From a virus: a stretch of DNA of 64,000 bases. Made by a program: the position numbers and the translations under genes. The notes under the pieces were generated by a model. It was not told the origin of the DNA. It searched no databases and saw nothing but the letters and a program-made list of their open reading frames with translations. This document shows, in pieces, positions 1 to 61,988 of the stretch; within the stretch, counting starts at the first letter, position 1, and every line of letters begins with the position of its first letter. The stretch lies in the IMG/VR virus record IMGVR_UViG_3300042430_002694, positions 186,001 to 250,000 of that record; one strand, given 5' to 3'.

Positions 1-293
1 TAGTATGGACCGTTTCAGCAAACGGCCAGCTCCGATTTGGGTTAGGCTACCCTTACGACAACAATATCCCAACCGATATTAGCAGATTAAATATCAAGCT
101 TGAGTCTACGACTATTCTTGATTACGTATCGGCTGCTAGTACTCAGGTTACGAATCAGTTATTAACTAAATTATCTCAAGCTGGACTGCAATTCATACAG
201 AAGCTTGAGTGTCCAACTGAAGAGATTGACTTGGACATGTACCCAACTATTCAAGTTAATGAAATCAAAAATATCAGAGACCAACGTCGATGA
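1..293 (+). CDS. 3' part of a CDS cut by the window start
   Basis: A frame read from base 3 stays open for 96 codons and stops at TGA 291-293, overlapping the ATG of the next gene (ATGA). The visible C-terminus ends in an Arg-rich tail (RDQRR). I do not recognise the family. The tight overlap suggests translational coupling to the tagged protein that follows, so a virion or late protein is possible, but that is inference. Confidence 0.6.
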   Translation, partial: VWTVSANGQLRFGLGYPYDNNIPTDISRLNIKLESTTILDYVSAASTQVTNQLLTKLSQAGLQFIQKLECPTEEIDLDMYPTIQVNEIKNIRDQRR

Positions 294-1726
294 AACACAT
301 ACAGCTATACGAAAGCTGGATATTTGAGAATGTCCAAGCAGCAAAAGCATACATGCTTAAGAGAGCAGCACAGTCTCTAGGAAAAGAAGTAAGTGAACTT
401 ACTCCTGAGGAACAGACTCGTGCTCTAAACAATCGTCAATACCTAGAAGTACTTGAATTACTTGGTCAAAAATACAATGGTTACTTAGGAACTTTCGTTA
501 AATTCCATTTCGAACAGAGAATTTCAGTAGACCAATTGAAACAACTATTGGACCAAATGATTAAGTACCGTCAACTAGTTAGCACTCTTCCATATACACT
601 AGATGCCTATTCAAACGGAAATCCTGAACCTGGATCTACAGTTTCAGGTTTTGAAGCGCTAATGGACCAGTTCAGAACATTTGAATTTAATTCCAAAGGT
701 AAATGGATAATTGATGCTCTTCCTAGAGAACTTAGAGATCAGGCTCGTGCTCTTGATCCGGAAAAACAAAAGGAACTTATTCGTATTGGTTGGACAATCG
801 CTGATCAGGGCGAAGCTATTCAAAAGAGAGTAATGTCCAAAGTTGCTCGCTACCGAACTATTCAAGATTTCATGAAGTATGCATTAGATATTTCAAGCTC
901 AGATGAAGGTTCTCAAAAATTAGTAGCTCAAGCTGAAAGTCTTTCTCCTGAAATTCAGGTAATGTACGATGATAATAATTACGTGGTCTTTTCAGTTAGG
1001 ACTGAAGCTGCACAGAAAGCAATATTCCGTATGGCTAACTGGTGTCTAAACACTGGAAGTTGGGACTCTTATGTAAGTCGTGGAGTTCAATTAAATATCC
1101 TTAACTTTAATGTTCCGAATAGTGATCCAATGTTTGTAACTGGAACAACAGTCCTTGCCTCAGACTCAAGTGTTAAAGCGTCACACGATGCAAACGACCG
1201 CAATATAAAGAAAGATTCTGATCCAGCTACTCATTTACAAATGAACGGCTATCCGGAAGATCTTGTTAATCAAGTAATTGCACTACTTCCGTCTGAGATA
1301 GTGGTGAAGACTGTTCTTGCAAATATTATGTCTAAAGCAGGAGTTGATGCAAAGATCCAATCACTTGCGGTTGCAGGTCATGATCTAGAAACCCTAACTG
1401 ATCCAGTCGCTAGAGAACAGGTTGAAAGAGATTTGCTAATTATTATTGATAACGAATTTGAATCAGAGAATTTCTCAACTGAAGCAATGTTGGAAGGATT
1501 CAAGAAACATGGAATACTTTCAATGTTCGCTGCTAAGCTATACCATAAACTTCTAGTAGGTAAAATCTCTCAAGAAGATGTTGATGCAATCTTTGCTAAG
1601 ACAGAAAGAGGCTTTGAACTCTTAACCAGAAATGTAAACAACTGGCCTGATCCAAAGATTAAGGCAAAGATTACTGCCGTGCTTGCCGCGAAAGATCAAA
1701 TTCTGAATTTAGCAAGAACTGTCTAA
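290..1726 (+). CDS. Unknown 478-aa protein with capsid-targeting-like N-terminus
   Basis: Starts MKHIQLYESWIFENVQ, a variant of the short amphipathic N-terminal tag shared by about ten proteins in this window (compare 3625, 25720, 48458). The body is soluble and mixed charged/hydrophobic, with no motif I recognise. The ATG overlaps the stop of the upstream gene by 4 nt. By analogy with T4 internal head proteins, whose N-terminal targeting peptide is cut by the prohead protease after an h-x-E site, this may be a head-packaged protein. That is inference; the enzymatic function, if any, is unknown. Confidence 0.7.
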   Translation: MKHIQLYESWIFENVQAAKAYMLKRAAQSLGKEVSELTPEEQTRALNNRQYLEVLELLGQKYNGYLGTFVKFHFEQRISVDQLKQLLDQMIKYRQLVSTLPYTLDAYSNGNPEPGSTVSGFEALMDQFRTFEFNSKGKWIIDALPRELRDQARALDPEKQKELIRIGWTIADQGEAIQKRVMSKVARYRTIQDFMKYALDISSSDEGSQKLVAQAESLSPEIQVMYDDNNYVVFSVRTEAAQKAIFRMANWCLNTGSWDSYVSRGVQLNILNFNVPNSDPMFVTGTTVLASDSSVKASHDANDRNIKKDSDPATHLQMNGYPEDLVNQVIALLPSEIVVKTVLANIMSKAGVDAKIQSLAVAGHDLETLTDPVAREQVERDLLIIIDNEFESENFSTEAMLEGFKKHGILSMFAAKLYHKLLVGKISQEDVDAIFAKTERGFELLTRNVNNWPDPKIKAKITAVLAAKDQILNLARTV

Positions 1727-1737
1727 GACTTATTTAG

Positions 1738-1743
1738 TATAAT
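1738..1743 (+). promoter_or_regulatory. TATAAT-type promoter box
   Basis: TAGTATAATA context; the hexamer ends 7 nt before the ATG at 1751, leaving room for almost no 5' leader. Confidence 0.5.
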
Positions 1744-1750
1744 AGTCTTA

Positions 1751-2365
1751 ATGATAGACAATTTACAACTTATTAAACCCCTTTTAAACTTTTCAGAGAA
1801 GGGAGACTTCTATATGCTGTACGTGTTTAAACGTAAGAAGGATCAGCCGGAGGGAGAGAGAGACAATCACCAGTCAGTTAGAACAATCAAAACCTATTGT
1901 ATTGAAAGCCTTGACCATTTAGATAGAAGATGGGAAGAGATCTTGCAGTTATGTGAGATGTTTAAGGCTCGTGCATACATTCATGTACAAAAACAGAATC
2001 ATTTTGACGTTAGCTTAAACATGATGGTTGCTCTTGCTCAAAGAATTCAAGACGGCAACACCAATCAAAAGGGTCTGTTCGACTCAGTCGTCGGTCAAAT
2101 CAAAACTCAAGAAAAGAGATGGATTGTTGATATCGATACTAAAGATGAGATCACAGTTCATAGGATCGTTCATATAATCGATTCAAATATAAAGCCTGAG
2201 GGCTCAAAGATTATTACATGTATTCCAACCAAGAACGGTTATCACCTGATCACCAAGCGTTTTGATGTATTGGAGTTTACAAAATACATGAAACTTCAAG
2301 GAGATGTTCCAGATATTCAAAAGAAGAACCCTACTTTATTATATTATCCAAATAGTTTAGATTAA
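1751..2365 (+). CDS. Primase-polymerase (AEP/PrimPol)-like protein
   Basis: A 204-aa protein. Around residue 128 it has DIDTKD after a hydrophobic strand, and around residue 162 KNGYHLI; an acidic DxD motif followed by a G-x-H strand is the arrangement of the archaeo-eukaryotic primase catalytic core. A third acidic motif is not clear, and the protein is short, so it could be a minimal primase or an inactive relative. It has its own promoter box and is followed 2 nt later by a small membrane protein. It would fit phage DNA replication in the cytoplasm. The assignment rests on two motifs only. Confidence 0.4.
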   Translation: MIDNLQLIKPLLNFSEKGDFYMLYVFKRKKDQPEGERDNHQSVRTIKTYCIESLDHLDRRWEEILQLCEMFKARAYIHVQKQNHFDVSLNMMVALAQRIQDGNTNQKGLFDSVVGQIKTQEKRWIVDIDTKDEITVHRIVHIIDSNIKPEGSKIITCIPTKNGYHLITKRFDVLEFTKYMKLQGDVPDIQKKNPTLLYYPNSLD

Positions 2366-2367
2366 TT

Positions 2368-2565
2368 ATGCAAAATCAAATCATTCAAGACGTATGTCTT
2401 TATTTCTTATTCGGTATTTGTTGGATGATACTCGTTGAGTACATCGACTCCAAACAACCTGAGAAACAGTTAACTGTAATTGCTAGAATAGTAATTATCG
2501 TAACGTGGCCGCTAGCCGCATTCATTGGGATCCTAACCCTAATTCGAAAATCATTAAACAATTAA
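2368..2565 (+). CDS. Small membrane protein, 65 aa
   Basis: Two hydrophobic segments (about residues 8-25 and 37-58) separated by a charged stretch (DSKQPEKQ) predict two transmembrane helices. It lies 2 nt after the primase-like gene and 2 nt before the next gene, so it is probably in one operon. Function unknown. Confidence 0.6.
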   Translation: MQNQIIQDVCLYFLFGICWMILVEYIDSKQPEKQLTVIARIVIIVTWPLAAFIGILTLIRKSLNN

Positions 2566-2567
2566 CA

Positions 2568-10982: not shown

Positions 10983-11534
10983 ATGTTAAAATCATTTAGC
11001 CAATTCGTAACTGGATTATTTGAAAAGAAAGGAGACGCTCATAGTTATGGATGTGCAATGGTCTATTTCAATTTTCCAACAATGCCTGAACTGCATTCAA
11101 AAATAGATGAAGCAGATATCTACACAGAAGAGGGCGATCGTTCATACGGTCTTGAGGATGAACCTCATACAACTCTTTTATATGGACTTCATTCGGCAGA
11201 TATTAATGACGCTAAGGTATTAGAGATATGTAAATCTAAACCAATCGGTCAACTGACTCTACATAATGCATCTCTATTTGAGAATGCTAAATACGATGTA
11301 CTTAAGTTTGATGTAGAAAATCCAGTGTTGGCTGAGATTAATGCAGAACTTAGTAAGTTACCTCACACTACTGATTTCCCAGACTACCATCCACATGCAA
11401 CAATCGGGTACCTAAAGCCTGGAACCGGCAAGAAATACGTTGACTTATTTAATGGTAATCGGCATGAAGTCGCTGCTCATAAAATAGTTTATTCAAAACC
11501 TGACGACAGTCGAATCGAAGAAGAATGGAATTAA
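10983..11534 (+). CDS. Tagged 2H phosphoesterase (RNA ligase/cyclic-phosphodiesterase fold)
   Basis: A 183-aa protein. Residues 1-16 (MLKSFSQFVTGLFEKK) match the capsid-targeting-like tag. Two catalytic HxT motifs are present, PHTTLLYG (about residue 60) and HPHATIGYL (about residue 140), defining the 2H superfamily, which hydrolyses cyclic phosphates or 2'-5' bonds. Phage members include Acb1, which degrades CBASS cyclic-nucleotide signals, and RNA-repair phosphodiesterases; motif reading cannot choose between them. The tag suggests delivery with the genome. It overlaps the next gene by 10 nt. Confidence 0.75.
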   Translation: MLKSFSQFVTGLFEKKGDAHSYGCAMVYFNFPTMPELHSKIDEADIYTEEGDRSYGLEDEPHTTLLYGLHSADINDAKVLEICKSKPIGQLTLHNASLFENAKYDVLKFDVENPVLAEINAELSKLPHTTDFPDYHPHATIGYLKPGTGKKYVDLFNGNRHEVAAHKIVYSKPDDSRIEEEWN

Positions 11535-12158: not shown

Positions 12159-12902
12159 TTAAAAGATATACTTTAAAAGAACTGACGCAGTTTCCTGAGA
12201 AGGATTAACTGAGTCTGTTATGTAATGAGGGTAACCTTGATAGCTATACGTATAAACTAATCCTATTTCTAAATTCTTTTTAATCTTAAGTGCGATTGTG
12301 TTTGTACTTCGCATGTTTAAATTATCTAGAAAAGAAACTTCTCTGCTTGAATAAATTGCTGGCTGAAATAGAGTAACTGACGAGATCTTAATCAATCCGC
12401 TTTCGTAATTTGCTCTAAGTCTAGATGATGCTCTTACTGTAAAGTTATTATTTGAAACCTTAATGCTGGACCAAAAATACTCTGGCAAAATTACTTCAGA
12501 GAAAACAATATCGAACTTCTTATTCTTGATAATTGATACGCCTAATCCCAAACCAGCTGAGCTTCGAAGATCTATTTTTCTCATGTATGATCTCTCATCT
12601 TCAGTAAATCCAATAACTTTAAACTTACCTATCTGTTTTGAAATATTTCCAGTCAAGTAGACTTCATTTTCGTACTGAGTCATTTCAGATTTTCCATACG
12701 CGGATTGCTTGCTCCAACGGTAAGTAGTATTTAGATTCCATTGATACGATCCAGTATCTCTTTTTAATTCAGCTTTCGTTGTAATACCAATTGCACTAAA
12801 GTTTCCCCTAGTTCCATCTCCTCCAACCGATATTGATTTTTTAATTTGACTAAATACAGGTAATGAGACTGTCAGTAATAGTATCGTTAATATAAACTTC
12901 AT
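12159..12902 (-). CDS. Exported beta-barrel-like protein, 247 aa
   Basis: The N-terminus MKFILTILLLTVSLPVFSQ is a typical Bacteroidota signal peptide ending SQ. The rest alternates polar and hydrophobic residues in short strands and ends in an aromatic residue (LLKYIF), as expected of an outer-membrane beta-barrel. No family recognised. It is the last gene of the reverse block and shares one base (TAATG) with the gene before it. Confidence 0.65.
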   Translation of the reverse strand: MKFILTILLLTVSLPVFSQIKKSISVGGDGTRGNFSAIGITTKAELKRDTGSYQWNLNTTYRWSKQSAYGKSEMTQYENEVYLTGNISKQIGKFKVIGFTEDERSYMRKIDLRSSAGLGLGVSIIKNKKFDIVFSEVILPEYFWSSIKVSNNNFTVRASSRLRANYESGLIKISSVTLFQPAIYSSREVSFLDNLNMRSTNTIALKIKKNLEIGLVYTYSYQGYPHYITDSVNPSQETASVLLKYIF

Positions 12903-13369
12903 TATTTGTTACGTGTATTTTTTAACTGTATTATTTGGTTAACTGCATTTAGGAATAACCAGTCCTCGACATCAGTTAACTTACATAAAAAATTATATTC
13001 ATGCATGTAACACATGAGCTCCTCTTCTCTTGCTGTAAACTTAATCAAGTTATTCCATAAGTACAGGTGATACGACTCATGCACCAATACGGCCGCTAAA
13101 TTATTAATAGACGGACTAGTTACGTCCTTTGTATTAATCACAATAGTATTGGGTGGAAGGTTAGTAGATCTATCGCCCATTATAAACTCAATTCGTTTAC
13201 AATTCGTAATCAGAGTTTGGTAACTAACTGAGTCAGTATCTTTTACAAGTAAAATAGCCCTCTCGACTCTAGCCTTCCAGCCGTCTCCGACATCGTCTAT
13301 TACTATTTGAGAAAATCCAAATACTGGAATCGTTAATATTAATACAATTAAGGCATTTTTAAAATACAT
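12902..13369 (-). CDS. Exported HExxH metallopeptidase-like protein, 155 aa
   Basis: Signal peptide (residues 1-21, ending GFSQ). LVHESYHLYLW (about residues 90-100) is a HExxH zinc motif, and a downstream acidic cluster (AREEEL) could give the third ligand, as in gluzincins. That would make it a small periplasmic or surface protease or a degenerate relative. It overlaps the upstream gene by 22 nt and the downstream gene by 1 nt. Confidence 0.55.
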   Translation of the reverse strand: MYFKNALIVLILTIPVFGFSQIVIDDVGDGWKARVERAILLVKDTDSVSYQTLITNCKRIEFIMGDRSTNLPPNTIVINTKDVTSPSINNLAAVLVHESYHLYLWNNLIKFTAREEELMCYMHEYNFLCKLTDVEDWLFLNAVNQIIQLKNTRNK

Positions 13370-13821
13370 TGTTCAAGTGCTTTTTTGATAGAATTAGATA
13401 CTGTCATTTTAGAAAACGGCATAGCACCCTCTTCCAATTCAATCATTACGGCTCTCACCTCAGTCTCAGACTCGCCAGTCCCTTCGTACTTTTGCCCGTT
13501 ATAATAAATTCGAACAGCGACTTGTGTAACCTGCTCAGTCTTTTCTATTCCAGCAATACGTATGGTACTTTTAGGAATACCGAAATAATAGATCTCAATC
13601 TTAATTGGGGATCCTGCATCAGATAGACAGTATTTAGAAGAAAGTAGGTCTTCTGCTATTTGCTTTACACCAAACCGAATATCACGGTTTCCTAATTCCC
13701 TAACCTTTGCGGTAGAATATACTGTGTCTATTTTAATACACATGTGAATTGGGCTAGTTTGCGAAAAAGCCAGCAGCTGTACCAATAGTAAAACTGCAAG
13801 CAATAAAATAAACTTCTTCAT
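13348..13821 (-). CDS. Exported unknown protein, 157 aa
   Basis: Signal peptide MKKFILLLAVLLLVQLLAFSQ, then a mature alpha/beta domain with two Cys (HMCIKID and SKYCLSD) that could form a disulfide. The pattern of strands followed by EGTGESETEVRAVMIEL resembles periplasmic assembly-factor folds such as the small partners of CsgG-type secretion systems, but I cannot name a family. Coupled by overlap to the metallopeptidase-like gene. Confidence 0.55.
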   Translation of the reverse strand: MKKFILLLAVLLLVQLLAFSQTSPIHMCIKIDTVYSTAKVRELGNRDIRFGVKQIAEDLLSSKYCLSDAGSPIKIEIYYFGIPKSTIRIAGIEKTEQVTQVAVRIYYNGQKYEGTGESETEVRAVMIELEEGAMPFSKMTVSNSIKKALEQCILKMP

Positions 13822-13834
13822 CTTATAAAATTTA

Positions 13835-14116
13835 TTATTTTTTTAGTTCAATTATTGCATCCTCAACGTATTTATCACGTTGGTCTTGTAAGTATTGTAT
13901 TCGATCGAGCATAATTTGTTTATCATCCTTTACTGTTTGCTCAGTATAGGCTTTTTGTGCTTCATATAGTTTTTGCCAATACGCTACACGCTCTTCCATC
14001 ATCACGCCTTGATACCAAATAACCGCTATCATAAGTACGATGGTAAATGATTGTTCTTTTAGTTTAGAAAAGAAGGTATCCGTAAATCCTGAAGTAGGGT
14101 TTGTTTCTTCTGCCAT
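13835..14116 (-). CDS. Membrane-anchored coiled-coil protein, 93 aa (spanin/holin-module candidate)
   Basis: One transmembrane segment (about residues 24-40, FTIVLMIAVIWYQGVMM) followed by a charged helix (about 41-93) likely to form a coiled coil. N-in/C-out with a periplasmic coiled coil is the layout of an i-spanin, and lysis genes lie in the same block, but no o-spanin partner is evident. An ATAAATAA box precedes it on the reverse strand. Confidence 0.5.
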   Translation of the reverse strand: MAEETNPTSGFTDTFFSKLKEQSFTIVLMIAVIWYQGVMMEERVAYWQKLYEAQKAYTEQTVKDDKQIMLDRIQYLQDQRDKYVEDAIIELKK

Positions 14117-14132
14117 ATTTAATTTGTTTTTT

Positions 14133-14140
14133 TTATTTAT
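14133..14140 (-). promoter_or_regulatory. ATAAATAA late-like promoter box
   Basis: Reverse-strand ATAAATAA upstream of the start at 14116, matching the boxes seen before forward-strand structural genes. Confidence 0.35.
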
Positions 14141-15315
14141 TGTGTATAGCCAGTCCGTAACAGATAAAAGCTAGTAGTTCCTCCATTAGTTGGTGTTGAA
14201 ATAATCATTGATTGAACTCCTGGTATACTGGAGCGTAGATCACTTGTCCCGGAATTAATAGTTGTCCATTGAGCTGGCGTAAATATCCGATACGACGGAT
14301 ATGCATTTATCCAATTTGGAAATCTACCTGAAATTTTACCGAATATGCAATAGGAATCCGTTACATTAAACCGAGTATCTTGATTAACGTCCATTGTATA
14401 ATACAATTTAGAGCTTGGCATCACCGAGTATAATAACATTTGAATAGGGTATTGAGCAGCAGTTGATATTGGATTACTAATAGTCAGATTTTCTAATCTA
14501 ATTTGGAAATCATGGGACGCGTCATCTAAATTAGGTACCATTGAATATAGACCCAACGAATTAGTGTAATATGTTCCCTTTATGCTGAATGTAGTTTCCG
14601 GTGAAGCTGGTGTAAATCTAACTGAATAATTAGTTGCGCTCCATTGAGATGCATTCTTTCCACCGACTGGAACAACCGTTGACGAAGAAGTTGATATTAG
14701 ACCGGCGGTCGCGTTATTACTACCACATAAAGGTTTTGAGGCATAATTTATATCTATTAAATTCGACGTTTCATATAGAATGAACTGAAATGTGTGTAGA
14801 TTTGTTCTACACCCATAATGCGGAACTGCATTAAAAGAGACAGTCAACGATCTATTGGGCGATGTTCCTGATGTTACGTATCTGATGTTAGCTGATCCAG
14901 GAAATAAGTCCTCCCAATCCGCTAAAATTGCGTTTAATGGAGACCCTGCATTTGGAATAAAGGCTGCAGTATATCCAGTTGTTTGGCCCGAGCTAAACCC
15001 GATCCATCCATTTGATCCAACGTAAAATTGAGTATACGTATTTCCAAAGTAGGTAAAACTAAATCCTATATTAAATGGTCCATGTGTAGCATCGTCCGAT
15101 GATGGAATTACGGTACCGGTTGTATAACTAGGAGAAGTCGGATAAGTAGGAAAAGTTACTTCATATTGAACAATCCTTTTGCCGTATAGCAAGACTGGTA
15201 TATTTTGTAAGCCTTGACCATTAGCTCCATAAACATATCCTGAATAAGTAAATGGTTGAGCATACACCGACCCTATAATCAATGTAGCAATTAGTGTGAT
15301 GATAAACTTTCTCAT
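14137..15315 (-). CDS. Secreted protein with dockerin-like C-terminal region, 392 aa
   Basis: Signal peptide (1-19, VYAQ), an N-terminal Ig-like segment (SGYVYGANGQGLQNIPVLLY), a beta-rich domain containing GFSFTYFGNTYTQFYVGSNG, and a C-terminal Ca-loop-like stretch (MDVNQDTRFNVTDSYCIFG). The last ~90 residues parallel the central part of the 640-aa T9SS protein at 18492 (both read F-T/x-A-Q-W/Y-T-T-I), so the two are paralogous there. No T9SS sorting tail is seen on this protein. Likely periplasmic or surface-exposed; binding to the cohesin-like domain of the 640-aa protein is a hypothesis. Confidence 0.65.
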   Translation of the reverse strand: MRKFIITLIATLIIGSVYAQPFTYSGYVYGANGQGLQNIPVLLYGKRIVQYEVTFPTYPTSPSYTTGTVIPSSDDATHGPFNIGFSFTYFGNTYTQFYVGSNGWIGFSSGQTTGYTAAFIPNAGSPLNAILADWEDLFPGSANIRYVTSGTSPNRSLTVSFNAVPHYGCRTNLHTFQFILYETSNLIDINYASKPLCGSNNATAGLISTSSSTVVPVGGKNASQWSATNYSVRFTPASPETTFSIKGTYYTNSLGLYSMVPNLDDASHDFQIRLENLTISNPISTAAQYPIQMLLYSVMPSSKLYYTMDVNQDTRFNVTDSYCIFGKISGRFPNWINAYPSYRIFTPAQWTTINSGTSDLRSSIPGVQSMIISTPTNGGTTSFYLLRTGYTQ

Positions 15316-16982
15316 AATAGCATGCGAGTTCCCAGCATGATGGTATAGTTTAATGTGGATTCATTAATCGCCCAAGCTCCACCGGCGTTTATGTTAAGCT
15401 TAAATCGTTTAGTTATCCCGATATTAGTTCCCATAATAGGTAAAACCACATGTGGTGATTTTAATAGAACATCATTATAGTAACTAACGTATGGGGCATA
15501 CACGTACAAACATAACATTTTTACTGAAATTCTCTTAGAGATTTTCCAGTCATACATTCCTCCAGCAATAGCAGCAGTTCCTATAAAAGCAGTCCCTGAT
15601 ACTTGGCCGACTGAACCGGTTAGCATATAAAGAGCTTTTAGGTTTTTCGGCTTATTTAGAGTCCACATTTGACCTACTGCTAATGTTCCATAGACAGTCA
15701 TTTGTCTTTCAAAACCAATAGTAAGCGATGTAGAGATTAAATCTATTCTTCGCTTATTCATGAATGCATAAAAGCCTGTAATATTTGGACCCTTTATAGC
15801 AGTCGTATAGTCTGCACTAATTCCGTGAGATCTCTTTCCGTCCCATCTCATTGATGAGTAACCTCCAGTGACCTTTCCTCCAACTGTAACATCTGAATTT
15901 TTAAAATTGAATCCAACGAAATCGCTGCTTGCTAAAATACTAGGTCGATTCCCATTTTTATTAGAGGCACCGGCTGCTCCTCCACCTGCGGAAGTTGATT
16001 CCTGTACTGAACCAACTGATCCGCCAATTAAGTTAGTTTTTCCACCTGCTTCTGTTTCAGAAGTTGGCGTTGACTGATTATTTGAGCCGCTTGTTCCAGA
16101 GCCAGCGGTCGTTCCAGACCCGCCTCCATTAACATTGCCGCTATTTGAAGTTGATCCGCTAGCTTGAGATCCGGTAGTTCCGTTGCCGGTTGTTGATCCG
16201 CTTCCGGTAGTTGAGCCGGTCGTTGAACCGCTTCCGGTAGTTGAGCCGGTCGTTGAACCGCTTCCAGTGGTTGATCCACCTGCTTGAGACCCAGAGGTTC
16301 CATTGCCAGCTTGAGACCCAGCTGTTCCGTTACCGGCAGTTGATCCTGGTTCTCCAGATCCTCCGCTGCTTGTCGAGCCAGTTTCGTTCGAACCTTGAGT
16401 CTGTGAGCCCTGTGTCGTAGAAGATCCACTACTGCTAGTAGAGCTCCCATTGTTACTAGTGGTCCCAGAGTTAGAGCTACCACCAGTACTTCCATTAGAT
16501 TGTGCATTTGTTGAAGTACTATTTTCTGCAGGTTTATCCGCCCCGCCTTTATTTTTGGAGTTACCCTTTGACTTGGAGGAATTTTGTACACTAGAGACAG
16601 TTCCGCCAATCATATTACTTGATCCGCCAGCCATATCAGATAGAGCCGATAATGAGTTTACTATTCCTAGAAAACTAATTGCTGTATTTTGTGCTATATT
16701 AACTGAAGTAGGCATTCCTACTAAACTTGCACATGGGTTGTTATTACCAAAGGAAGAATAAACGCCTTGAGCCCATGTCTCAAAACCTCCATTGTAAAAA
16801 TCCGTTGGTTGAAATGTATTTACTTGACCGTAATAGGTTACTGTTATTCCGTTTGATGGAACTTGTATTGTTTTGTTTATTCCAGTACATGGATCAGTGT
16901 AATTGTAGGAAAAGGTTTGAGCCATTCCCAATGACGATACTAAGATCCACGCAATAAGCAGTATAATTTTTTTAACATACAT
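15312..16982 (-). CDS. Exported Gly/Ser/Thr-rich protein with C-terminal beta-barrel-like domain, 556 aa
   Basis: Signal peptide (1-21, GMAQ), an ~85-residue N-terminal domain, then a long low-complexity linker (about residues 120-330) rich in G, S, T, N and Q with repeated TTGSGS units, then ~220 residues of alternating strands with repeated glycines that look like an outer-membrane beta-barrel. The architecture suggests a barrel-anchored surface protein with a flexible spacer. The other frames across the repeat are also open for long stretches but are compositional shadows. It overlaps the downstream gene start by 4 nt. Confidence 0.65.
   Translation of the reverse strand: MYVKKIILLIAWILVSSLGMAQTFSYNYTDPCTGINKTIQVPSNGITVTYYGQVNTFQPTDFYNGGFETWAQGVYSSFGNNNPCASLVGMPTSVNIAQNTAISFLGIVNSLSALSDMAGGSSNMIGGTVSSVQNSSKSKGNSKNKGGADKPAENSTSTNAQSNGSTGGSSNSGTTSNNGSSTSSSGSSTTQGSQTQGSNETGSTSSGGSGEPGSTAGNGTAGSQAGNGTSGSQAGGSTTGSGSTTGSTTGSGSTTGSTTGSGSTTGNGTTGSQASGSTSNSGNVNGGGSGTTAGSGTSGSNNQSTPTSETEAGGKTNLIGGSVGSVQESTSAGGGAAGASNKNGNRPSILASSDFVGFNFKNSDVTVGGKVTGGYSSMRWDGKRSHGISADYTTAIKGPNITGFYAFMNKRRIDLISTSLTIGFERQMTVYGTLAVGQMWTLNKPKNLKALYMLTGSVGQVSGTAFIGTAAIAGGMYDWKISKRISVKMLCLYVYAPYVSYYNDVLLKSPHVVLPIMGTNIGITKRFKLNINAGGAWAINESTLNYTIMLGTRMLL
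16201..16260. repeat. 30-bp perfect tandem repeat, two copies
   Basis: 16201-16230 and 16231-16260 are identical, and a third degenerate copy follows. The unit encodes ten residues of the TTGSGS linker in the 556-aa protein, so copy number can change without a frameshift. Confidence 0.9.
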
Positions 16983-16996
16983 TTGCGTTTCATATT

Positions 16997-17716: not shown

Positions 17717-17718
17717 GA

Positions 17719-18081
17719 TTATTCGGTTACGTTATTTGAAGTAGTATTAGAAAGAGATACTCCATCTTCTTCGTCAACCTTTTGAATTAACATTTTATCA
17801 CGATCTTCTGAATTGAACCAGTAGTCAACTACTTTATTTAGGTTACCAACAAAGGCTCCCAATAAAAGAAGTAGTAATTCTTTCCAATCTTCTGCGATTG
17901 TTACTCCAAAAAATACAGCTGAATTAATTCCAGCAATAATAAAGAAGAAAAGAAATAGAACGATTCCTGTAATTTTCCAACGGTTTGACTGCATTTGTTG
18001 TAGCATGTAGTAGAAGCGATTCTTGTCTTCAACCTTTACGTATGCAGATTCACCGATTAATAATTTTTTCAAATTAGACAT
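17719..18081 (-). CDS. Holin-like membrane protein, 120 aa
   Basis: Two strong hydrophobic segments (about residues 36-58 and 66-82) separated by a short polar turn, then GNLNKVVDYWFNSEDRDK. A Y/W-W-F-x-S-x-x-x-R/K tail after the last helix is seen in many phage holins. It sits in the same block as the endolysin. It would permeabilise the inner membrane to release the endolysin; other small membrane proteins in the block (13835, 18143) are alternatives. Confidence 0.5.
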   Translation of the reverse strand: MSNLKKLLIGESAYVKVEDKNRFYYMLQQMQSNRWKITGIVLFLFFFIIAGINSAVFFGVTIAEDWKELLLLLLGAFVGNLNKVVDYWFNSEDRDKMLIQKVDEEDGVSLSNTTSNNVTE

Positions 18082-18116
18082 TGTAGTAGTAGTTTATTTT
18101 TAGTTCTGAAAATAAA

Positions 18117-18138
18117 AAGGCGGACGTTAATCCGCCTT
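18117..18138 (-). terminator. Rho-independent terminator
   Basis: An 8-bp inverted repeat (AAGGCGGA/TCCGCCTT) with a 6-nt loop, followed on the reverse strand by TTTTTATTTT, just after the stop of the 113-aa gene. Confidence 0.8.
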
Positions 18139-25719: not shown

Positions 25720-26271
25720 ATGAAACTTAAGAGATTTTCACAATTTGTAAAAGAGAGCTTGATAACAGAATCTTCGTCAGTTATTGAAGTTGAAGAAAAT
25801 ATATTCTTAATAGACGAAATAATCTACATAATTTGGCTTGTTACACTAGACGTATCTTTCGATTATGAGCCTGACGATAGCAGTGTCGGATTCGTTGGCG
25901 GCTATTCAGTTGATGATGTTGACTTTGATGGAGTAGACGGAGTGTATAAAGTAACTGATCCTTCAGTAATTTCGCAGGTTAAAGCCATGCTAGATTCCCC
26001 TGAAGCTGAAGAGTTAAAAAGCATGGGATTTGAAGGAGCTGATGAATATGCAGCAATTGGCGATTTAATATACGATGCAGAGCAAGAAGAAATTACAGGA
26101 GAAGAGCTCAAGGACTTCATTAATAAATTCAAAGCTCTTTACGATTCAAATACTCTAGTCGATTTAACTGGTACTTTCAAAAAAAGAACTGACTCTGCTC
26201 TCGATAGAGCGGTTGAGGATTTTGAACCTGATGAGCCTGACTACGATGATTACGACGATGATCGTTATTAA
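25720..26271 (+). CDS. Tagged acidic protein, 183 aa
   Basis: N-terminus MKLKRFSQFVKESLITE is the clearest form of the capsid-targeting-like tag, with an L-I-T-E site that would suit a T4-type prohead protease. The rest is strongly acidic (DEPDYDDYDDD at the end) and contains ELKSMGFEGADEYAAIGDL, a module repeated in the 443-aa protein at 48458. Probably an internal head or scaffold-associated protein, by inference. Confidence 0.65.
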   Translation: MKLKRFSQFVKESLITESSSVIEVEENIFLIDEIIYIIWLVTLDVSFDYEPDDSSVGFVGGYSVDDVDFDGVDGVYKVTDPSVISQVKAMLDSPEAEELKSMGFEGADEYAAIGDLIYDAEQEEITGEELKDFINKFKALYDSNTLVDLTGTFKKRTDSALDRAVEDFEPDEPDYDDYDDDRY

Positions 26272-26297: not shown

Positions 26298-26861
26298 ATG
26301 AAACTTAAAAGATTCACACAATTTGTTAACGAAGCAAAGATTAACGAAGCTCAAATCAAAGATAAAACTATCGTTGCTAAGCTTGATAGAATTCACGAAA
26401 TCAAAACTCGATTAAAAGAATTGACAGCTGAAACAAAAGCTATCAATACTGAGCTTGGTGCATTTGATGCAACAATGAAGCCGATCTTTGATGCAATGAA
26501 AGTCCTAAATGATAAGCTTGCAACAACTGAAAAATACGTTATCAAGATTTCAAGATACGGCGGATCTTCTGAAAACCCATCTTATGCTAAAGCTGTAGAG
26601 CAGGCACTAGGGTTAGTCGATGCTGCTGCTCAAGCAATTATCAACGAATGTGTTAGACAAAACACAGCAATATCAAACGTAAAACACTCATACGATATTG
26701 AAAAACTAGATGAATCTAAATTAACTGATAAAGCTAAAGCGATCGTTGCTAGGTTGTCTGGTAAAATCACAGCAATCGTTGCCAAGTTAAAGTCTTTCTT
26801 TGAGTCTAAATTCTCTAAGATCGATCAAGCAAACGAAAAACTTGCAGCAATGATAAAGTAA
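26298..26861 (+). CDS. Tagged coiled-coil protein, 187 aa
   Basis: N-terminus MKLKRFTQFVNEAKINEAQI differs at only two of the first nine residues from the preceding gene's tag and offers V-N-E and I-N-E cleavage-like sites. The body is helical with heptad-like repeats (about 25-75 and 130-187). It contains ENPSYAKAVEQ, echoed as KNPSYAKKMES in the protein at 48458. A head-internal or scaffold-like role is inferred. Confidence 0.65.
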   Translation: MKLKRFTQFVNEAKINEAQIKDKTIVAKLDRIHEIKTRLKELTAETKAINTELGAFDATMKPIFDAMKVLNDKLATTEKYVIKISRYGGSSENPSYAKAVEQALGLVDAAAQAIINECVRQNTAISNVKHSYDIEKLDESKLTDKAKAIVARLSGKITAIVAKLKSFFESKFSKIDQANEKLAAMIK

Positions 26862-47873: not shown

Positions 47874-48458
47874 ATGAAACACCTTAAACTATACGAAGAA
47901 TTTGATCTTGACAGATTCCTAGACAATCCAGAAAAGGAATTAGCTGATGACAATTCACCAGAGATCAATGTAGGAAATTACGTTGACTCATACCGAGGTA
48001 AAGGCCAAGTGCTTGATATCGATAGCGATTTTGCAAAAGTTGAATTACATAACTCAAAAGGCAATATTGTTAAAGTTCCAGTTTTTGCTCTAACTAAAAT
48101 ATCTCACGAAGACCTAACTTCAGCCAAGGTCGGAGATTCTCAAGCTGAACTTGCGGAGCTAGTGAGTCAGGCCAGACAGTACAATGATTACCTTGACTCA
48201 ACTGAAGATTATGATAACGAAGATGAAGAGGATGGAGTTTACTCAGCAAGTCAGGTAAATTTCGATACCCTACTAGCATATATTCAAGATACAACGATCG
48301 ATGTTATCTCTATTAAAAATAACGATAGTGCATACGATACCTATTCAGAATATCACGAACTGATTAATTTAGTCGGCTCAATCGCTGGAGCAATTCAGAG
48401 AGCAAGACCGGACTTAATGGATGAAGTTGATGCAGCACTAGACAATTTCCCAGGATAA
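47874..48458 (+). CDS. Tagged acidic protein, 194 aa
   Basis: Residues 1-12 (MKHLKLYEEFDL) match the tag; a strongly acidic linker (TEDYDNEDEEDG, about 103-115) follows a small beta domain (GNYVDSYRGKGQVLDIDSDF, KOW/SH3-like). Ends with a helical segment. Overlaps the next tagged gene by 1 nt. Likely a head-internal protein, by the tag analogy. Confidence 0.6.
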   Translation: MKHLKLYEEFDLDRFLDNPEKELADDNSPEINVGNYVDSYRGKGQVLDIDSDFAKVELHNSKGNIVKVPVFALTKISHEDLTSAKVGDSQAELAELVSQARQYNDYLDSTEDYDNEDEEDGVYSASQVNFDTLLAYIQDTTIDVISIKNNDSAYDTYSEYHELINLVGSIAGAIQRARPDLMDEVDAALDNFPG

Positions 48459-49789
48459 TGAGACTTAAACGATTTACACAATTCGTTAATGAAAATACTG
48501 ATGATGCTGAAGAATTAGCAGCATTAGGTTTTAATTCAAAGATTGACACGGATGAAATTCAAGGATTAATGGCCGAATACAACCCAGAGGAGAAGACCGA
48601 CACGACATTAGGTTTCGATTTGGGATTTGATATGACAGCTGATGATTTAGGACTTGATCCAGAAAGAGCAGAGGCTGCTGAATTAGATAGCGTGTTCCTT
48701 GTTCAGTACTATGTTGATTTCGACTTTGAGACAATGAAATCTAAAGTACAAGTGGCAGTCTTAAATTCTGGGATTGATTTTGACGGTGCAGGTAATGCGT
48801 ATGAAGTTGATTTTAAACTGGATTCAGAAAATCACGATTCTCAAGGAATCGCTGATGAGTTAACTCAGATTTTGCAGCGAATTGAATACGAAGGCATGTT
48901 TGTAGACATGGCAGTCGATATAGTAAATGACATAATCGATAGACGTCTTGGAGAAGTATCAGAAAAGAAGAAACTTAAATGGCATGATTCTGATGAGCCT
49001 AACACAAAAGGAAAATTCATAATTGAGAACTTATCTGATGAAGAAGCTGCAGAACTAAGAGCAATGGGTTTTGGTGGAGTTGACACTGATGCAATCGCAG
49101 AACTAGTCAATGGAGCAACTGCAGAAGATCAAATCGTTATTGTTTCAGGCCAGTTCAATCAATCTATAGATGATTACGGAATAGATTCATCCGAATATCC
49201 GGATATAGAAAGAGACGTATGGACTGATTTTGAAGTCAGAATAAACTTTATCGATGAAACTGTTAAGTCGTCAGTTAGTGTCGCACAAAAAGATATCGGA
49301 CTTTACGAAGATGCTGAACTTGAAGACTATGAATGGTCTGACCTATTCCAAAATGGAGATCCAGTTTCAATGAAGTCTAATGAGATAGCTGAAGATATTG
49401 AACTCTTTATGAGTGCCGTAACTGGTTTCGAAGACTCGCTTGGAATGTACGACAAAATTCAAGATCTTTTAAATAAGGCAATTGAGGAACAGTATCACAG
49501 ATGGGATGACGAAGAAGATGATGAAGCTGATGAAGATGAAATTTCAGAAAAGAAAAAACTTAAATGGCACGATTCTGATGCACCTGATGCAAATGGAAAA
49601 TTCAGAGACCTTGGAGTTAATAAATTAGCGGATTGGTTAATCAGAACAAGAGGTGGTAACATGCAAAAGATTACTGGATCGCTAAATCAACAAATTAATT
49701 TTAACAAGCGAAAAAATCCAAGTTATGCCAAGAAAATGGAGTCGACTCGGGAAGCAGTTAAAAGAAAATTAGCAAAAAGAAAAGAATAA
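48458..49789 (+). CDS. Tagged acidic repeat protein, 443 aa
   Basis: Residues 1-11 MRLKRFTQFVN-E are nearly identical to the tags at 25720 and 26298. The body repeats modules: EELAALGF/AAELRAMGFGGVDTDAI, and SEKKKLKWHDSD occurs twice (about residues 168 and 364). The C-terminus is basic (RKLAKRKE) and holds KNPSYAKKMES, seen also at 26298. Acidic modules with a basic tail and a packaging-type tag suggest an internal head or DNA-condensing protein. Confidence 0.6.
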   Translation: MRLKRFTQFVNENTDDAEELAALGFNSKIDTDEIQGLMAEYNPEEKTDTTLGFDLGFDMTADDLGLDPERAEAAELDSVFLVQYYVDFDFETMKSKVQVAVLNSGIDFDGAGNAYEVDFKLDSENHDSQGIADELTQILQRIEYEGMFVDMAVDIVNDIIDRRLGEVSEKKKLKWHDSDEPNTKGKFIIENLSDEEAAELRAMGFGGVDTDAIAELVNGATAEDQIVIVSGQFNQSIDDYGIDSSEYPDIERDVWTDFEVRINFIDETVKSSVSVAQKDIGLYEDAELEDYEWSDLFQNGDPVSMKSNEIAEDIELFMSAVTGFEDSLGMYDKIQDLLNKAIEEQYHRWDDEEDDEADEDEISEKKKLKWHDSDAPDANGKFRDLGVNKLADWLIRTRGGNMQKITGSLNQQINFNKRKNPSYAKKMESTREAVKRKLAKRKE

Positions 49790-51124: not shown

Positions 51125-51132
51125 ATAAATAA
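51125..51132 (+). promoter_or_regulatory. ATAAATAA late-like promoter box
   Basis: GTATAAATAAAC (contains TATAAATA), 22 nt before the TTG start at 51155. Confidence 0.45.
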
Positions 51133-53065: not shown

Positions 53066-53362
53066 ATGCATAATAATAAAATTTTAAGTTTCGAAGAATT
53101 CGTTCAACAAGGAACAGGCGAAATGGGTCAGGAAATGGGCCACGAAATGGACCATACTGCTGAAATGCCACAGGGCGGAGAAGATCAAGCACTATTACCA
53201 GCACCAGCTGAAGAAGTAGAAGGCGGAGAAACTGAACACAACGTTCCAAACCACATGCAAGATGATTCAGAAGAAGGAACTTCTGACAATGAACCTAATA
53301 TTGAAGTTGAAACATCAGCTAACGATATTGAAGCACACACCGACGAAAACGGCGGATTCTAA
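53066..53362 (+). CDS. Tagged very acidic protein, 98 aa
   Basis: MHNNKILSFEEFVQQGTGE is a longer tag variant shared with 61623 (KILxFxxF). The remainder is Met/Gly/Glu-rich (GQEMGHEMDHTAEMPQ) and highly acidic. It looks like a small internal head protein or scaffold piece. No enzymatic motif. Confidence 0.55.
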   Translation: MHNNKILSFEEFVQQGTGEMGQEMGHEMDHTAEMPQGGEDQALLPAPAEEVEGGETEHNVPNHMQDDSEEGTSDNEPNIEVETSANDIEAHTDENGGF

Positions 53363-60300: not shown

Positions 60301-61269
60301 ATGGGAAGATTTGGTAAAAACAGAGTGCCTAATTTCATGAAAGGTAAAGAAGATGCAATTGGCGCTAATCCAAGAGTAGCTGATGAAAATTTGGATGAAA
60401 TGCATCCAGTAGAAATAGTTTCATTGGGAGATCATGGAGACGACCATGCAATGATCGTTATTAGAAGTAAATCAGGTGAAGAGCTTGAGCTTAGATTCGA
60501 CTATGACGGTAACGGCATGCTAACGGCAATGCACGGAGATCATGAGTACTCTATTCCAGTAGAACTTGAAGTTGTATCTGATGAAATTGACGAAAAACTT
60601 AAAGGTAAACAAAAGAACTTAGATAAGAATCGAAATGGAAAAATTGATTCAGGCGATTTTAAATTACTTAATAAGTCGAAAGAGGATACTGAAGGTAAAG
60701 CTTCTAACACATTTGAAAATTTCGTTAATGAGTGTTGGTCACCAATGACCGAAGGCTACAGCCCAGCAATGTCAGAAGAAGCACAGAATGCAGTTAAATC
60801 AGTATGCGAAGAAATTCTAATTAAAGAGGCTCAAATGTGCGATGAAGACGCAGATCCTAACCATACATACGAGAATTACTTAAATGAAGTTGGCTCGTAC
60901 ATGAGTAAGTGTATGATGGAAGCAGCGGCTGAGGTTGATGTGGAAGAGCCGATTAACGAAAGAGCTATTCAATATCCAAAGGCTGGAGGAAAATGGGTAA
61001 CACCAGATGCGAGTAAATACGTAGTATATGTAGGAAAAACCCCATATAAAGTAACGGTGAAGTCTCCGATCTACAGCGGCCCTATCATTATTCAACACAT
61101 AGACGGTCCAAAAGAAGGTTGGATGGGAAATTACTATACGGTAACTGATAGTAAAGGACAAACTAAAGACTTTGATGAAAGCGAAATTGCTGCACTTGTT
61201 AAAAAAGAAGGAAGTAATGTTATTGAACTAGGCGGAGCATTAGGCAAAGCTATTTTTACTAAAGCTTAA
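60301..61269 (+). CDS. EF-hand-motif protein with internal tag-like repeats, 322 aa
   Basis: An acidic N-terminal half with an EF-hand-like loop, DKNRNGKIDSGDF (about residues 106-118). Two tag-like segments lie inside, NTFENFVNECW (about 138) and HTYENYLNEVGS (about 187). A beta-rich C-terminal domain (about 220-322, ASKYVVYVGKTPYKVTVKS) follows. Late-like promoter. Likely a virion or scaffold protein; internal tags could be processing sites. Confidence 0.55.
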   Translation: MGRFGKNRVPNFMKGKEDAIGANPRVADENLDEMHPVEIVSLGDHGDDHAMIVIRSKSGEELELRFDYDGNGMLTAMHGDHEYSIPVELEVVSDEIDEKLKGKQKNLDKNRNGKIDSGDFKLLNKSKEDTEGKASNTFENFVNECWSPMTEGYSPAMSEEAQNAVKSVCEEILIKEAQMCDEDADPNHTYENYLNEVGSYMSKCMMEAAAEVDVEEPINERAIQYPKAGGKWVTPDASKYVVYVGKTPYKVTVKSPIYSGPIIIQHIDGPKEGWMGNYYTVTDSKGQTKDFDESEIAALVKKEGSNVIELGGALGKAIFTKA

Positions 61270-61292
61270 ATTCATAATTAAATATAAAACTA

Positions 61293-61319
61293 AAGCTCGG
61301 AACATTCCGAGCTTTTTTA
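61293..61319 (+). terminator. Rho-independent terminator
   Basis: AAGCTCGGA-ACAT-TCCGAGCTT then TTTTA. Confidence 0.9.
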
Positions 61320-61336
61320 TTTAGGTTAGGCCGTGA

Positions 61337-61344
61337 ATAAATAA
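61337..61344 (+). promoter_or_regulatory. ATAAATAA late-like promoter box
   Basis: GAATAAATAATC directly after the terminator, 5 nt before ATG 61350. Confidence 0.4.
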
Positions 61345-61349
61345 TCAAT

Positions 61350-61607
61350 ATGGACAATCCACATAATAATAAAATGTCATCTGGTGAAATTACTGTACCA
61401 GCCAGTTCATTTCAACAAAGAACTGATATGAATATTCAACCTACTCCAGTAAATGTGGCTGTGGGTGGGCTTCCTCAGCACTGGTTGAATACAGCGCCGT
61501 ATTCTAAGCGAGATATGACAACTAATTCGACTCCATCCAGAATCGGCTCAAATCCTAGAGTTTATAAAGTCCTACGATTTAACGAGTATATGGAATCTAA
61601 TAAATAA
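61350..61607 (+). CDS. Small protein with C-terminal tag-like segment, 85 aa
   Basis: Pro/Asn/Gln-rich with little predicted structure; the C-terminus VLRFNEYMESNK mirrors the tag consensus (hydrophobic-x-x-F-x-x-Y-h-x-E) at the opposite end of the chain. Possibly a structural peptide. Late-like promoter. Stop TAA is embedded in the next ATAAATAA box. Confidence 0.55.
   Translation: MDNPHNNKMSSGEITVPASSFQQRTDMNIQPTPVNVAVGGLPQHWLNTAPYSKRDMTTNSTPSRIGSNPRVYKVLRFNEYMESNK
61600..61607 (+). promoter_or_regulatory. ATAAATAA late-like promoter box
   Basis: TAATAAATAATAA, overlapping the previous stop and 15 nt before ATG 61623. Confidence 0.35.
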
Positions 61608-61622
61608 TAAAAAGTAACTACT

Positions 61623-61988
61623 ATGAGTAACAAAATTTTAAACTTCGACGATTTTCATAAAGGGTCTAACTTAAGCGATCCCAAGAAACATGCAACGGCC
61701 TCAAAACCTGATCAAGTTAAGAAAGAAAAAACAATTGATCAAGTTAAGAGTGCTGATCTATCTCAAGTTAAGGTAACTGAGCCTGATTACACGAAAGTAT
61801 CTAAAACTCCTATTCAAGAGAGCTCAGCTGATACTCAAGCACAGATCGATATAATTAATCAGACCAAAGCACTTAGGGACCAAGTCGCAGCTGCTGCAAC
61901 TGATGCAGAAAAGATTCAGCTATTGACTAAAATCAAGCAGATTGAACAACAAGCTGAGCAGAAAGCAAAGGCTACTAAGACTGCATAA
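61623..61988 (+). CDS. Tagged Lys/Gln-rich helical protein, 121 aa
   Basis: MSNKILNFDDFHKGSN is the same long tag variant as at 53066. The body is Lys/Gln/Asp-rich with SADTQAQIDI and a C-terminal coiled coil (about 68-115). It sits between structural-looking genes. Internal head or scaffold-type role inferred. Confidence 0.55.
   Translation: MSNKILNFDDFHKGSNLSDPKKHATASKPDQVKKEKTIDQVKSADLSQVKVTEPDYTKVSKTPIQESSADTQAQIDIINQTKALRDQVAAAATDAEKIQLLTKIKQIEQQAEQKAKATKTA

What the first reader, a model, noticed from the sequence alone, without database searches (positions are those of the whole stretch)
290..61988. A shared N-terminal capsid-targeting-like tag on about ten unrelated proteins
Genes at 290, 3625, 10983, 25720, 26298, 47874, 48458, 51155, 53066 and 61623 begin with variants of MK-L/H-K/L-x-F/Y-x-x-F-V-x-E (for example MKLKRFTQFVNE, MKLLKFTQFITE, MKHLKPYNQFLNE). 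The bodies are unrelated, including a nucleotidyltransferase and a 2H phosphoesterase. T4 internal proteins IPI-IPIII carry a very similar N-terminal peptide (MKTYQEFIAEA) that targets them into the prohead and is cut by gp21 after an h-x-E. The parallel is direct in sequence; that these proteins are packaged is inference. If right, this phage injects a suite of effector enzymes with its DNA. Tag-like segments also occur internally at 60301 and C-terminally at 61350.
Basis: partly seen in the sequence, partly recalled or inferred. Interest (0 to 1): 0.93.

Follow-up and report, generated by a model that had tools for sequence, protein, structure and literature searches.

The report
Capsid-entry tags on many phage proteins
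A giant phage of the huge-phage group puts the same short address label on the front of about twenty largely unrelated proteins, several of them enzymes, and the evidence suggests the label loads them into the virus head, probably so that they enter the next host cell together with the DNA.

Summary
The tag core [FY]-x-x-F-[VIL]-x-E, complete in 15 of 20 (F or W at the second aromatic), falls on the four positions known in T4's capsid-targeting sequence: residues 4 and 7 (targeting), 8 and 10 (cleavage). T4 IPIII scores 10.8 bits.

New evidence for the head reading: (1) the genome encodes a T4 gp21-type prohead protease (S77) fused to nine 14-residue repeats Y-x-x-[YH]-[VIL]-x-E; (2) tagged genes carry a T4-type late-promoter motif more often than untagged ones, 11/20 against 16/167, and a gp55 late sigma factor is present; (3) Nudix homologues keep the tag in 24 of 24 loci; (4) in a 2H phosphoesterase model the tag lies outside the fold.

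Not shown: packaging, cleavage, injection. Tagged proteins include 2H phosphoesterase, nucleotidyltransferase, Nudix, lysozyme-domain and deoxyribonucleotidase-like proteins. It looks like a much enlarged variant of T4's internal-protein system.

The parts
290..331 (+). tag MKHIQLYESWIFEN on a 478-aa protein of unknown function
   Evidence: 13.3 bits with the cross-phage profile, 6.3 bits
3625..3663 (+). tag MKHLKPYNQFLNE on a nucleotidyltransferase-like protein (phrog_36119 E 3e-39)
   Evidence: 22.8 bits
3612..3619 (+). late-promoter-like ATAAATAA, 5 nt before the ATG of 3625
10983..11024 (+). tag MLKSFSQFVTGLFE on a 2H phosphoesterase (HxT dyads H62/T64 and H138/T140); no E at the usual place
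   Evidence: 10.4 bits; residues 1-19 of the model pLDDT under 50
25720..25755 (+). tag MKLKRFSQFVKE, followed by a second h-x-E (LITE)
   Evidence: 18.6 bits
25695..25702 (+). ATAAATAA, 17 nt before 25720
26298..26333 (+). tag MKLKRFTQFVNE, followed by a second h-x-E (KINE)
   Evidence: 22.2 bits
26271..26278 (+). ATAAATAA, 19 nt before 26298
47874..47903 (+). tag MKHLKLYEEF (no h-x-E at the usual place)
   Evidence: 9.0 bits
47862..47869 (+). ATAAATAA (within TATAAATAA), 4 nt before 47874; may also serve 48458
   Evidence: shared transcript inferred from the overlap of the two genes
48458..48493 (+). tag MRLKRFTQFVNE on a 443-aa acidic protein
   Evidence: 20.4 bits
51155..51190 (+). tag MKLLKFTQFITE, TTG start
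   Evidence: 19.1 bits (gene put in by a special rule)
51125..51132 (+). ATAAATAA, 22 nt before 51155
53066..53104 (+). tag MHNNKILSFEEFV on a 98-aa very acidic protein (K+R 1, D+E 26); no E at the usual place
   Evidence: 11.0 bits
53039..53046 (+). ATAAATAA, 19 nt before 53066
60712..60732 (+). internal core FENFVNE in the 322-aa protein of 60301
   Evidence: 10.2 bits
60868..60888 (+). second internal core YENYLNE in the same protein
   Evidence: 6.9 bits
60274..60281 (+). ATAAATAA, 19 nt before 60301
61578..61595 (+). C-terminal tag-like FNEYME in the 85-aa protein of 61350
   Evidence: not among the top profile matches
61337..61344 (+). ATAAATAA, 5 nt before 61350
61623..61655 (+). tag MSNKILNFDDF, no h-x-E
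   Evidence: 9.3 bits, 4.3 bits
61600..61607 (+). ATAAATAA, 15 nt before 61623

Best explanation
The shared leader is a capsid-targeting tag that works like T4's. Late in infection the tagged proteins are made, about half of them from their own gp55-type late promoter. The leader docks on the prohead core through its two aromatic residues; the core is most likely the repeat-bearing part of the protease-scaffold fusion. The protein is thus trapped inside when the Gp23-type shell closes. The S77 protease then cuts the scaffold repeats, the capsid protein and most tags after h-x-E, which frees the cargo. At least part of it, above all the enzymes, leaves with the DNA at the next infection. Shown: the motif and its statistics, the protease, the repeats, the late-motif link, conservation in relatives, separateness of tag and fold in one model. 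Inferred: docking, packaging, cutting, injection.
For: The cross-phage profile hits the ten genes and T4 IPIII at 10.8 bits. The tag residues match the T4 positions found by mutation to govern targeting (4, 7) and processing (8, 10) (PMC9026906 section 2.6, passages). The full core with E is in 15 of 20 tagged proteins, followed by S, N, G or A in 12 of the 15. S77 protease in the genome, E 1.2e-10, 0 of 14 control genomes, next to the major capsid gene, E 1.5e-41. Nine repeats Y-x-x-[YH]-[VIL]-x-E at exact 14-residue spacing (shuffle mean 0.34, max 4), 7-14 matches in five other huge phages, none in PTm1. Behind the capsid gene lie 14572 (13.8 bits), 14958 (tagged by eye, 3.2 bits) and 16918 with an internal core at 25.3 bits. 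Late motif on 11 of 20 tagged against 16 of 167 untagged genes, Fisher p 5e-6; window alone 7 of 10 against 6 of 86, p 1e-5. gp55 homologue E 2.2e-17. Nudix homologues keep a leader of 8 bits or more in 24 of 24 loci with an intact start, 10 distinct sequences. AlphaFold model of 10983: tag disordered, body folded. 2H relatives also sit inside long multidomain proteins, one with an ADP-ribosyltransferase domain of polyvalent proteins; polyvalent proteins are predicted to be injected (PMC5512222, passages).
Against: I saw no virion proteomics for this clade. The tag profile scores the scaffold repeats low (best repeat 3.8 bits), so 'tag equals scaffold repeat' rests on the reduced motif only, and both may just be substrates of one protease. 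Only 8 of 22 loci with 2H homologues (4 of 17 distinct leaders) carry a leader of 8 bits or more. 5 of 20 tagged proteins lack the full core with E, 10983, 47874, 53066 and 61623 among them. 14 of 20 tagged proteins are net acidic, unlike T4 internal proteins. 9 of 20 tagged genes have no late motif of their own within 60 nt. A looser DNA pattern was about twofold over control in the tagged clade and in the other ten phages alike. One of 55 PTm1 N-termini also fits the core.
Confidence: 0.75

Rival explanations
1. The tag does bring proteins to the prohead, but most tagged proteins are core or assembly factors (like T4 gp67, gp68) that are digested or stay in the head; there is little or no effector injection.
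For: Many tagged proteins are acidic, some short, like T4 gp67 (gp67 sequence); 14572 and 14958 sit right behind the capsid gene.
Against: Several tagged proteins have enzyme domains with no evident assembly role: Nudix, 2H phosphoesterase, nucleotidyltransferase, phage lysozyme, deoxyribonucleotidase-like, and in relatives an RNA ligase and a PNK3P phosphatase.
Confidence: 0.25
2. The leader is a short docking motif for something outside the head (for example a phage compartment, the membrane or a host protein); likeness to T4 is convergence on F-x-x-F-h-x-E.
For: Packaging has not been measured; the motif is short and simple; the tag is on enzymes that could act elsewhere. I did not test for a phage nucleus or other compartment.
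Against: The late-motif link, tags around the capsid gene, the internal core at 25.3 bits in a protein of the head region, and the h-x-E ending in 15 of 20, which fits the cleavage rule of T4-type proteases.
Confidence: 0.12
3. Chance or shared DNA: an AT-rich start region or a duplicated 5' segment gives similar N-termini without function.
For: Three tags are near identical in protein; 25720 and 48458 also share a weakly similar 34-aa stretch in the body.
Against: 20 of 187 against 0.5 expected; 4-5 synonymous changes among the near-identical tags; no other related pair of bodies among 20.
Confidence: 0.01

Closest known systems
T4 capsid-targeting sequence and internal proteins IPI, IPII, IPIII
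   Same: Short N-terminal leader on unrelated bodies; aromatic-x-x-F-h-x-E with the same four key positions; gp21/S77 protease and Gp23 capsid in the genome; IPIII leader recognised by the huge-phage profile at 10.8 bits.
   Different: About 20 tagged proteins in half of one genome instead of three; enzymes among them and most net acidic; usually 12-14 residues up to the E instead of 10; tag cores also internal or C-terminal; protease fused to a repeat region. T4 IPI itself scores only 3.3 bits.
T4 gp21 protease and gp22 scaffold
   Same: S77 protease beside the major capsid gene.
   Different: Here one polypeptide with nine 14-residue repeats bearing h-x-E; T4 gp22 has no match to that motif; a protease-scaffold fusion is annotated in Tenacibaculum phage PTm1 but with other repeats.
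Inner-body and ejection proteins of phiKZ-like and SPN3US phages
   Same: Head proteins cut after an x-x-E site by a related protease and ejected; SPN3US cuts after A-X-E with Ser preferred next (PMC10052503, passages).
   Different: In SPN3US most propeptides are long (111-254 aa, two of 20 and 24) and no short common tag on enzymes is described in the passages I read.
Polyvalent proteins (Iyer et al. 2017)
   Same: 2H phosphoesterase and ADP-ribosyltransferase domains predicted to be injected (PMC5512222, passages); 2H relatives of 10983 occur in such long proteins.
   Different: There the domains are fused in one giant protein; here each protein is separate and carries the tag.

Membership tests
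T4-type capsid-targeting sequence (CTS) proteins | short N-terminal leader shared by otherwise unrelated proteins | tested here: met
   (one weak pair of bodies among 20)
T4-type capsid-targeting sequence (CTS) proteins | aromatic at CTS position 4 and F at 7 (targeting), hydrophobic at 8 and E at 10 (processing) | tested here: met
   full core with E in 15 of 20 tagged proteins; five lack part of it; positions from PMC9026906
T4-type capsid-targeting sequence (CTS) proteins | S77/gp21 prohead protease in the same phage | tested here: met
T4-type capsid-targeting sequence (CTS) proteins | late expression with the head genes | tested here: inconclusive
   late motif directly upstream of 11 of 20 tagged against 16 of 167 untagged genes; gp55 homologue; expression itself not measured
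T4-type capsid-targeting sequence (CTS) proteins | leader directs the protein into the prohead | not testable with these tools
   needs virion proteomics or a packaging assay
T4-type capsid-targeting sequence (CTS) proteins | leader removed by the protease after E | not testable with these tools
   needs mass spectrometry or an in vitro digest
T4-type capsid-targeting sequence (CTS) proteins | protein injected with the DNA | not testable with these tools
   needs infection experiments
Acb1 anti-CBASS nuclease (for the 10983 protein) | 2H fold with two HxT dyads | tested here: met
   H62, T64, H138, T140 invariant in 13 sequences; fold search
Acb1 anti-CBASS nuclease (for the 10983 protein) | match to the Acb1 family rather than to 2H enzymes in general | tested here: inconclusive
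   PF23474 25.0 bits, cut-off 27; relatives L088 and L094 above it, L089 at it, L090, L076 and the LR745206 protein below it; Acb1 7t26 Z 12.8 tied with Usb1, CPDase and others
Acb1 anti-CBASS nuclease (for the 10983 protein) | cleaves cyclic oligonucleotides of CBASS | not testable with these tools
   needs an assay

The most novel reading that the evidence does not exclude
Huge phages run a general protein-delivery system: a modular tag, possibly derived from the repeat of their own scaffold, loads dozens of separate proteins (2H phosphoesterase, RNA ligase, PNK-type phosphatase, nucleotidyltransferase, Nudix, lysozyme, metallopeptidase-like, leucine-rich-repeat proteins) into the head, so the virion brings its counter-defence and RNA-repair kit before any gene is expressed; other lineages, such as Lak phages, use their own tag variants.
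Probability: 0.4. Interest if true: 0.92.

Novelty: new variant of a known kind. Interest (0 to 1): 0.78.

Why it matters
It would give a sequence-only way to read the packaged and perhaps injected proteome of uncultured giant phages, where most genes have no known function. It would extend the T4 internal-protein idea from three small inhibitors to a large set that includes enzymes, and it makes the question 'what does a huge phage bring in with its DNA?' directly testable by looking for tag-cleaved N-termini in metaproteomes. The tag would also be a handle for loading proteins into very large heads.

Tried and rejected
Chance and DNA-level origin were tested and rejected. The idea that the tag is simply one scaffold repeat is only half supported: the reduced motif is shared and precisely periodic, but the tag profile gives the repeats low scores (the training pattern demanded F where the repeats have Y or H, which lowers them). 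The AlphaFold model of the protease-scaffold protein was of no use (mean pLDDT 44, pTM 0.26). A looser DNA pattern over 15 phages was about twofold over control in both groups (324 against 139 in five records with the repeats, 141 against 70 in ten others), so I rely on the strict pattern (51 against 4 in six records with the repeats, 7 against 1 in ten others); that contrast is confounded by common descent, the protease frame of only some of the ten others was looked at, and the strict pattern by design does not cover T4's spacing. PADLOC gave one weak match for 3625 and none for the other six proteins. Pfam and PHROGs gave no function for 290, 25720, 26298, 47874, 48458, 51155, 53066 and 61623, only weak matches or none. 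tblastn of 48458 found no phage relative. Acb1 identity of 10983 is undecided. Literature: no paper held both 'huge phage' and 'capsid targeting' (0 papers); the listings (4 papers; 11; 12 of 32 shown) showed no title or abstract start that reports such tags in huge phages, and one search found 0; in the 2026 jumbo-phage review the term 'targeting sequence' did not occur. I read listings and passages only.
Full report
What it is in. The window is bases 186001-250000 of a 271,160-base virus record. Its relatives by neck, nucleotidyltransferase and protease genes are foremost the uncultured huge phages LR756500-LR756504 and LR745206 (462-735 kb), and also Lak, Tenacibaculum, Chryseobacterium and Sphingomonas phages. 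The paper that described the Mahaphage clade puts its largest genomes and the Lak phages in it and predicts Bacteroidetes hosts for the five above 634 kb (PMC7162821, passages only); that LR756500-504 and LR745206 are from that study is my recollection and a match of sizes.

The observation. A matrix from 14 leaders outside the window finds 7 of 98 window genes at 12 bits or more; 0.13 expected. A stronger test uses sequences of other phages only: 39 in-frame leaders taken by a strict DNA pattern from five other huge phages (39 of 47 matches; 8 left out as out of frame, near-duplicates or judged unlike; the pattern itself was modelled on the motif seen here) give a profile whose hits at 8 bits or more among 96 window genes are exactly the ten listed genes; among all 187 genes of the 142 kb held there are 20, with 0.50 expected (15 of 5573 internal 25-mers pass). 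The gene list contains 51155 by a special rule for its TTG start, and part of the stretches outside the window were fetched because a pattern had hit there, so 20 of 187 is not an unbiased rate; 10 of 96 in the window does not suffer from that. At 4 bits or more the held set has 26 of 187, 3.19 expected. T4 IPIII scores 10.8 bits; T4 IPI 3.3 and the gp23 cut site 4.5. The full core with E (F, Y or W at the second aromatic) is in 15 of the 20; the next residue is S 6, N 2, G 2, A 2, K 1, R 1, F 1. The bodies are unrelated but for one weak pair (25720 and 48458).

More tagged genes outside the window. Scoring 8 bits or more: a deoxyribonucleotidase-like protein (32875, phrog_2643 E 2e-23), a protein with an HELEH motif (36620; no family match), 14572 just behind the capsid gene, a Nudix hydrolase (129501, PF00293 E 9e-15), 150299, 150781, 181418, a phage-lysozyme-domain protein (182991, PF00959 E 1e-9), 184310 and 256614. 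Others look tagged by eye but score lower, among them 14958, 180391, 266956 and 267395; 181629 (MKSFKTFLNE) did not enter the list of best scores. A core also lies inside 16918 (KIKRFEQFVNEN, 25.3 bits, the best internal match) and at the C-terminus of 265397 (9.2 bits). Internal matches of similar strength also occur in proteins with no known link to the head (for example 229362 at 19.5 bits), so single internal hits prove little.

The machinery. The genome has a Peptidase_S77 gene (E 1.2e-10, none in 14 control genomes) directly before a Gp23-type major capsid gene (E 1.5e-41; order). The protease open frame continues into a region with nine copies of Y-x-x-[YH]-[VIL]-x-E at exact 14-residue spacing; shuffles give 0.34 on average and 4 at most. 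Five other huge phages have 7, 11, 12, 14 and 13 such matches (counted with a slightly wider motif), mostly 14 apart; PTm1 has a protease-scaffold fusion with 16/32-residue periodicity and none of this motif, and 1 of its 55 N-termini examined fits the tag core. Its annotation calls the gene 'prohead core scaffolding protein and protease'. The start of our open frame is uncertain: no ATG upstream of the part I used, GTG or TTG possible. The capsid protein has SINE|SAVAPG at residue 53, a plausible cut site; relatives have INEN-type sites near the same place by eye. T4 gp22 has no match to the repeat motif.

Late expression. ATAAATAA, close to the T4 late promoter (TATAAATA, recalled), lies within 60 nt upstream of 11 of 20 profile-tagged genes and 16 of 167 others (Fisher p 5.4e-6); in the window 7 of 10 against 6 of 86 (p 1.4e-5). 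With a by-eye list it was 13 of 26 against 14 of 161 (one by-eye gene, 32875, fell out there because of its start). Among the untagged genes with the motif are the 60301 and 61350 genes that carry internal or C-terminal tags, and genes that look like tail tube (16312) and tail sheath (29737); those two names are my reading of size and place. A gp55 late sigma homologue is in the genome (phrog_234, E 2.2e-17, 0 of 14 controls).

Conservation. Strict pattern over 16 records: the six whose protease frame has the repeats hold 51 matches against 4 for the reversed pattern; the other ten hold 7 against 1. Held genes of LR756500: 11 of 93 N-termini have the core against 12 of 1204 internal 22-mers; LR745206 10 of 173 against 20 of 1416; Lak-A1 3 of 96 against 17 of 1352; Molly 0 of 106 against 4 of 860; Cr30 0 of 80 against 1 of 386. 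Nudix homologues in IMG/VR: 26 loci, two truncated at the start; 24 of 24 scored at 8 bits or more, 8.1-21.0, in 10 distinct sequences, one of them (L116) without the E. 2H homologues: 22 loci, 8 at 8 bits or more (4 of 17 distinct leaders, three loci identical to ours); the rest have other leaders, some ending in h-x-E (FINEKK, FITEKK, LLLEKK by eye), or are inside long proteins. The LR745206 2H protein carries MKLKKYKQFIKES and is fused to an exonuclease domain.

Cargo. 10983 is a 2H phosphoesterase: H62, T64, H138 and T140 invariant in 13 sequences, model mean pLDDT 87.8 with residues 1-19 under 50; Foldseek top hits are a poxvirus cGAMP phosphodiesterase, a phage phosphodiesterase and Acb1, but in VIA-align Acb1 (Z 12.8, rmsd 2.5, 131 aligned) ties with Usb1 and other 2H enzymes. 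Four homologues lie in proteins of 491-1101 aa, one with ART-PolyVal, one with a poly(A) polymerase head. In other huge phages tagged proteins include a T4 Rnl1-type RNA ligase (E 8e-21), a PNK3P phosphatase (E 2e-21), a DUF2201 metallopeptidase/VWA protein and a leucine-rich-repeat protein (10 proteins scanned, 4 with a match). Together these suggest counter-signalling and RNA repair at the moment of entry; that is inference.

Fit with T4. In T4 the first ten residues of IPIII suffice for packaging; residues 4 and 7 matter for targeting, 8 and 10 for processing (PMC9026906, passages). T4 internal proteins 1-3 are injected and block GmrSD variants, and related phages have many more, at least ten reported (PMC12373910, passages). 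The tag described here has the same four positions. What differs is number, kind of cargo, leader length, the fused repeat region, and charge: 14 of 20 tagged proteins are net acidic.

Verdict. Observation confirmed; a head-targeting, protease-cleaved tag is the best reading (0.75), injection of the enzymes less sure (about 0.55). A new variant of the T4 internal-protein kind; I found no report of it in huge phages in the listings, which cover only the open-licence library.

Noticed in passing
L045, L055-L059 (Lak-A1): Several Lak-A1 proteins begin with another shared leader, x-L-[LIMY]-E-S-L-F-D-[DE] (for example MNKLIKRLIESLFDDIDD, MKHFGFDSAYKKLYESLFDDTDD, MNKNIKILMESLFDEE); a lineage-specific tag of the same kind is possible. 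Seen by eye, not scored.
   Followed up: no
L006 2896 and 6087 (Maribacter phage Molly_1): Two nearby genes begin MNLKTLVET and MNLKSLVES; the first is the homologue of the tagged nucleotidyltransferase.
   Followed up: no
L047 (T4), ipI and 57B: T4 gene 57B (annotated RNA ligase; that it is T4 Acb1 is recalled) is next to ipI and begins MMEFKDFSTG, a little like the IPI leader MKTFKEFTST; it scores only -0.3 bits with the profile.
   Followed up: partly
L013 15397-16953 (G000 265397-266953) and L011 12785: The C-terminal part of the 265397 protein (VAPG..Q.PGSI..MGAI..PT) resembles the stretch of the major capsid protein right after its predicted cut site.
   Followed up: no
window 24436-50888: 26 tRNA genes, most in one cluster at 27.1-30.1 kb; short ORFs called there were left out of the gene counts.
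   Followed up: no
window 12159-21257, - strand: A block of reverse-strand genes, several with signal-peptide-like starts, and a peptidoglycan-binding-like protein (20433), in an otherwise mostly forward-strand region; naming is by eye.
   Followed up: no
L032 770-1294 (G000 180770-181294): An ECF-type sigma-factor-like protein lies among the tagged genes; naming is by eye.
   Followed up: no
L060-L063 (LR756500): Eleven genes with almost the same leader MK[YF]IxxYxxFhxE in 80 kb, at least four of them leucine-rich-repeat proteins by eye, one of these confirmed by Pfam.
   Followed up: partly
L011 4922-9719, - strand: A block of opposite-strand genes, glycosyltransferase-like by eye, lies just before the head genes.
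   Followed up: no
window 43362-43904: The 180-aa protein there has an internal match to the tag core (NQLKYSEFLNEHSF, 19.5 bits) with no evident link to the head.
   Followed up: no
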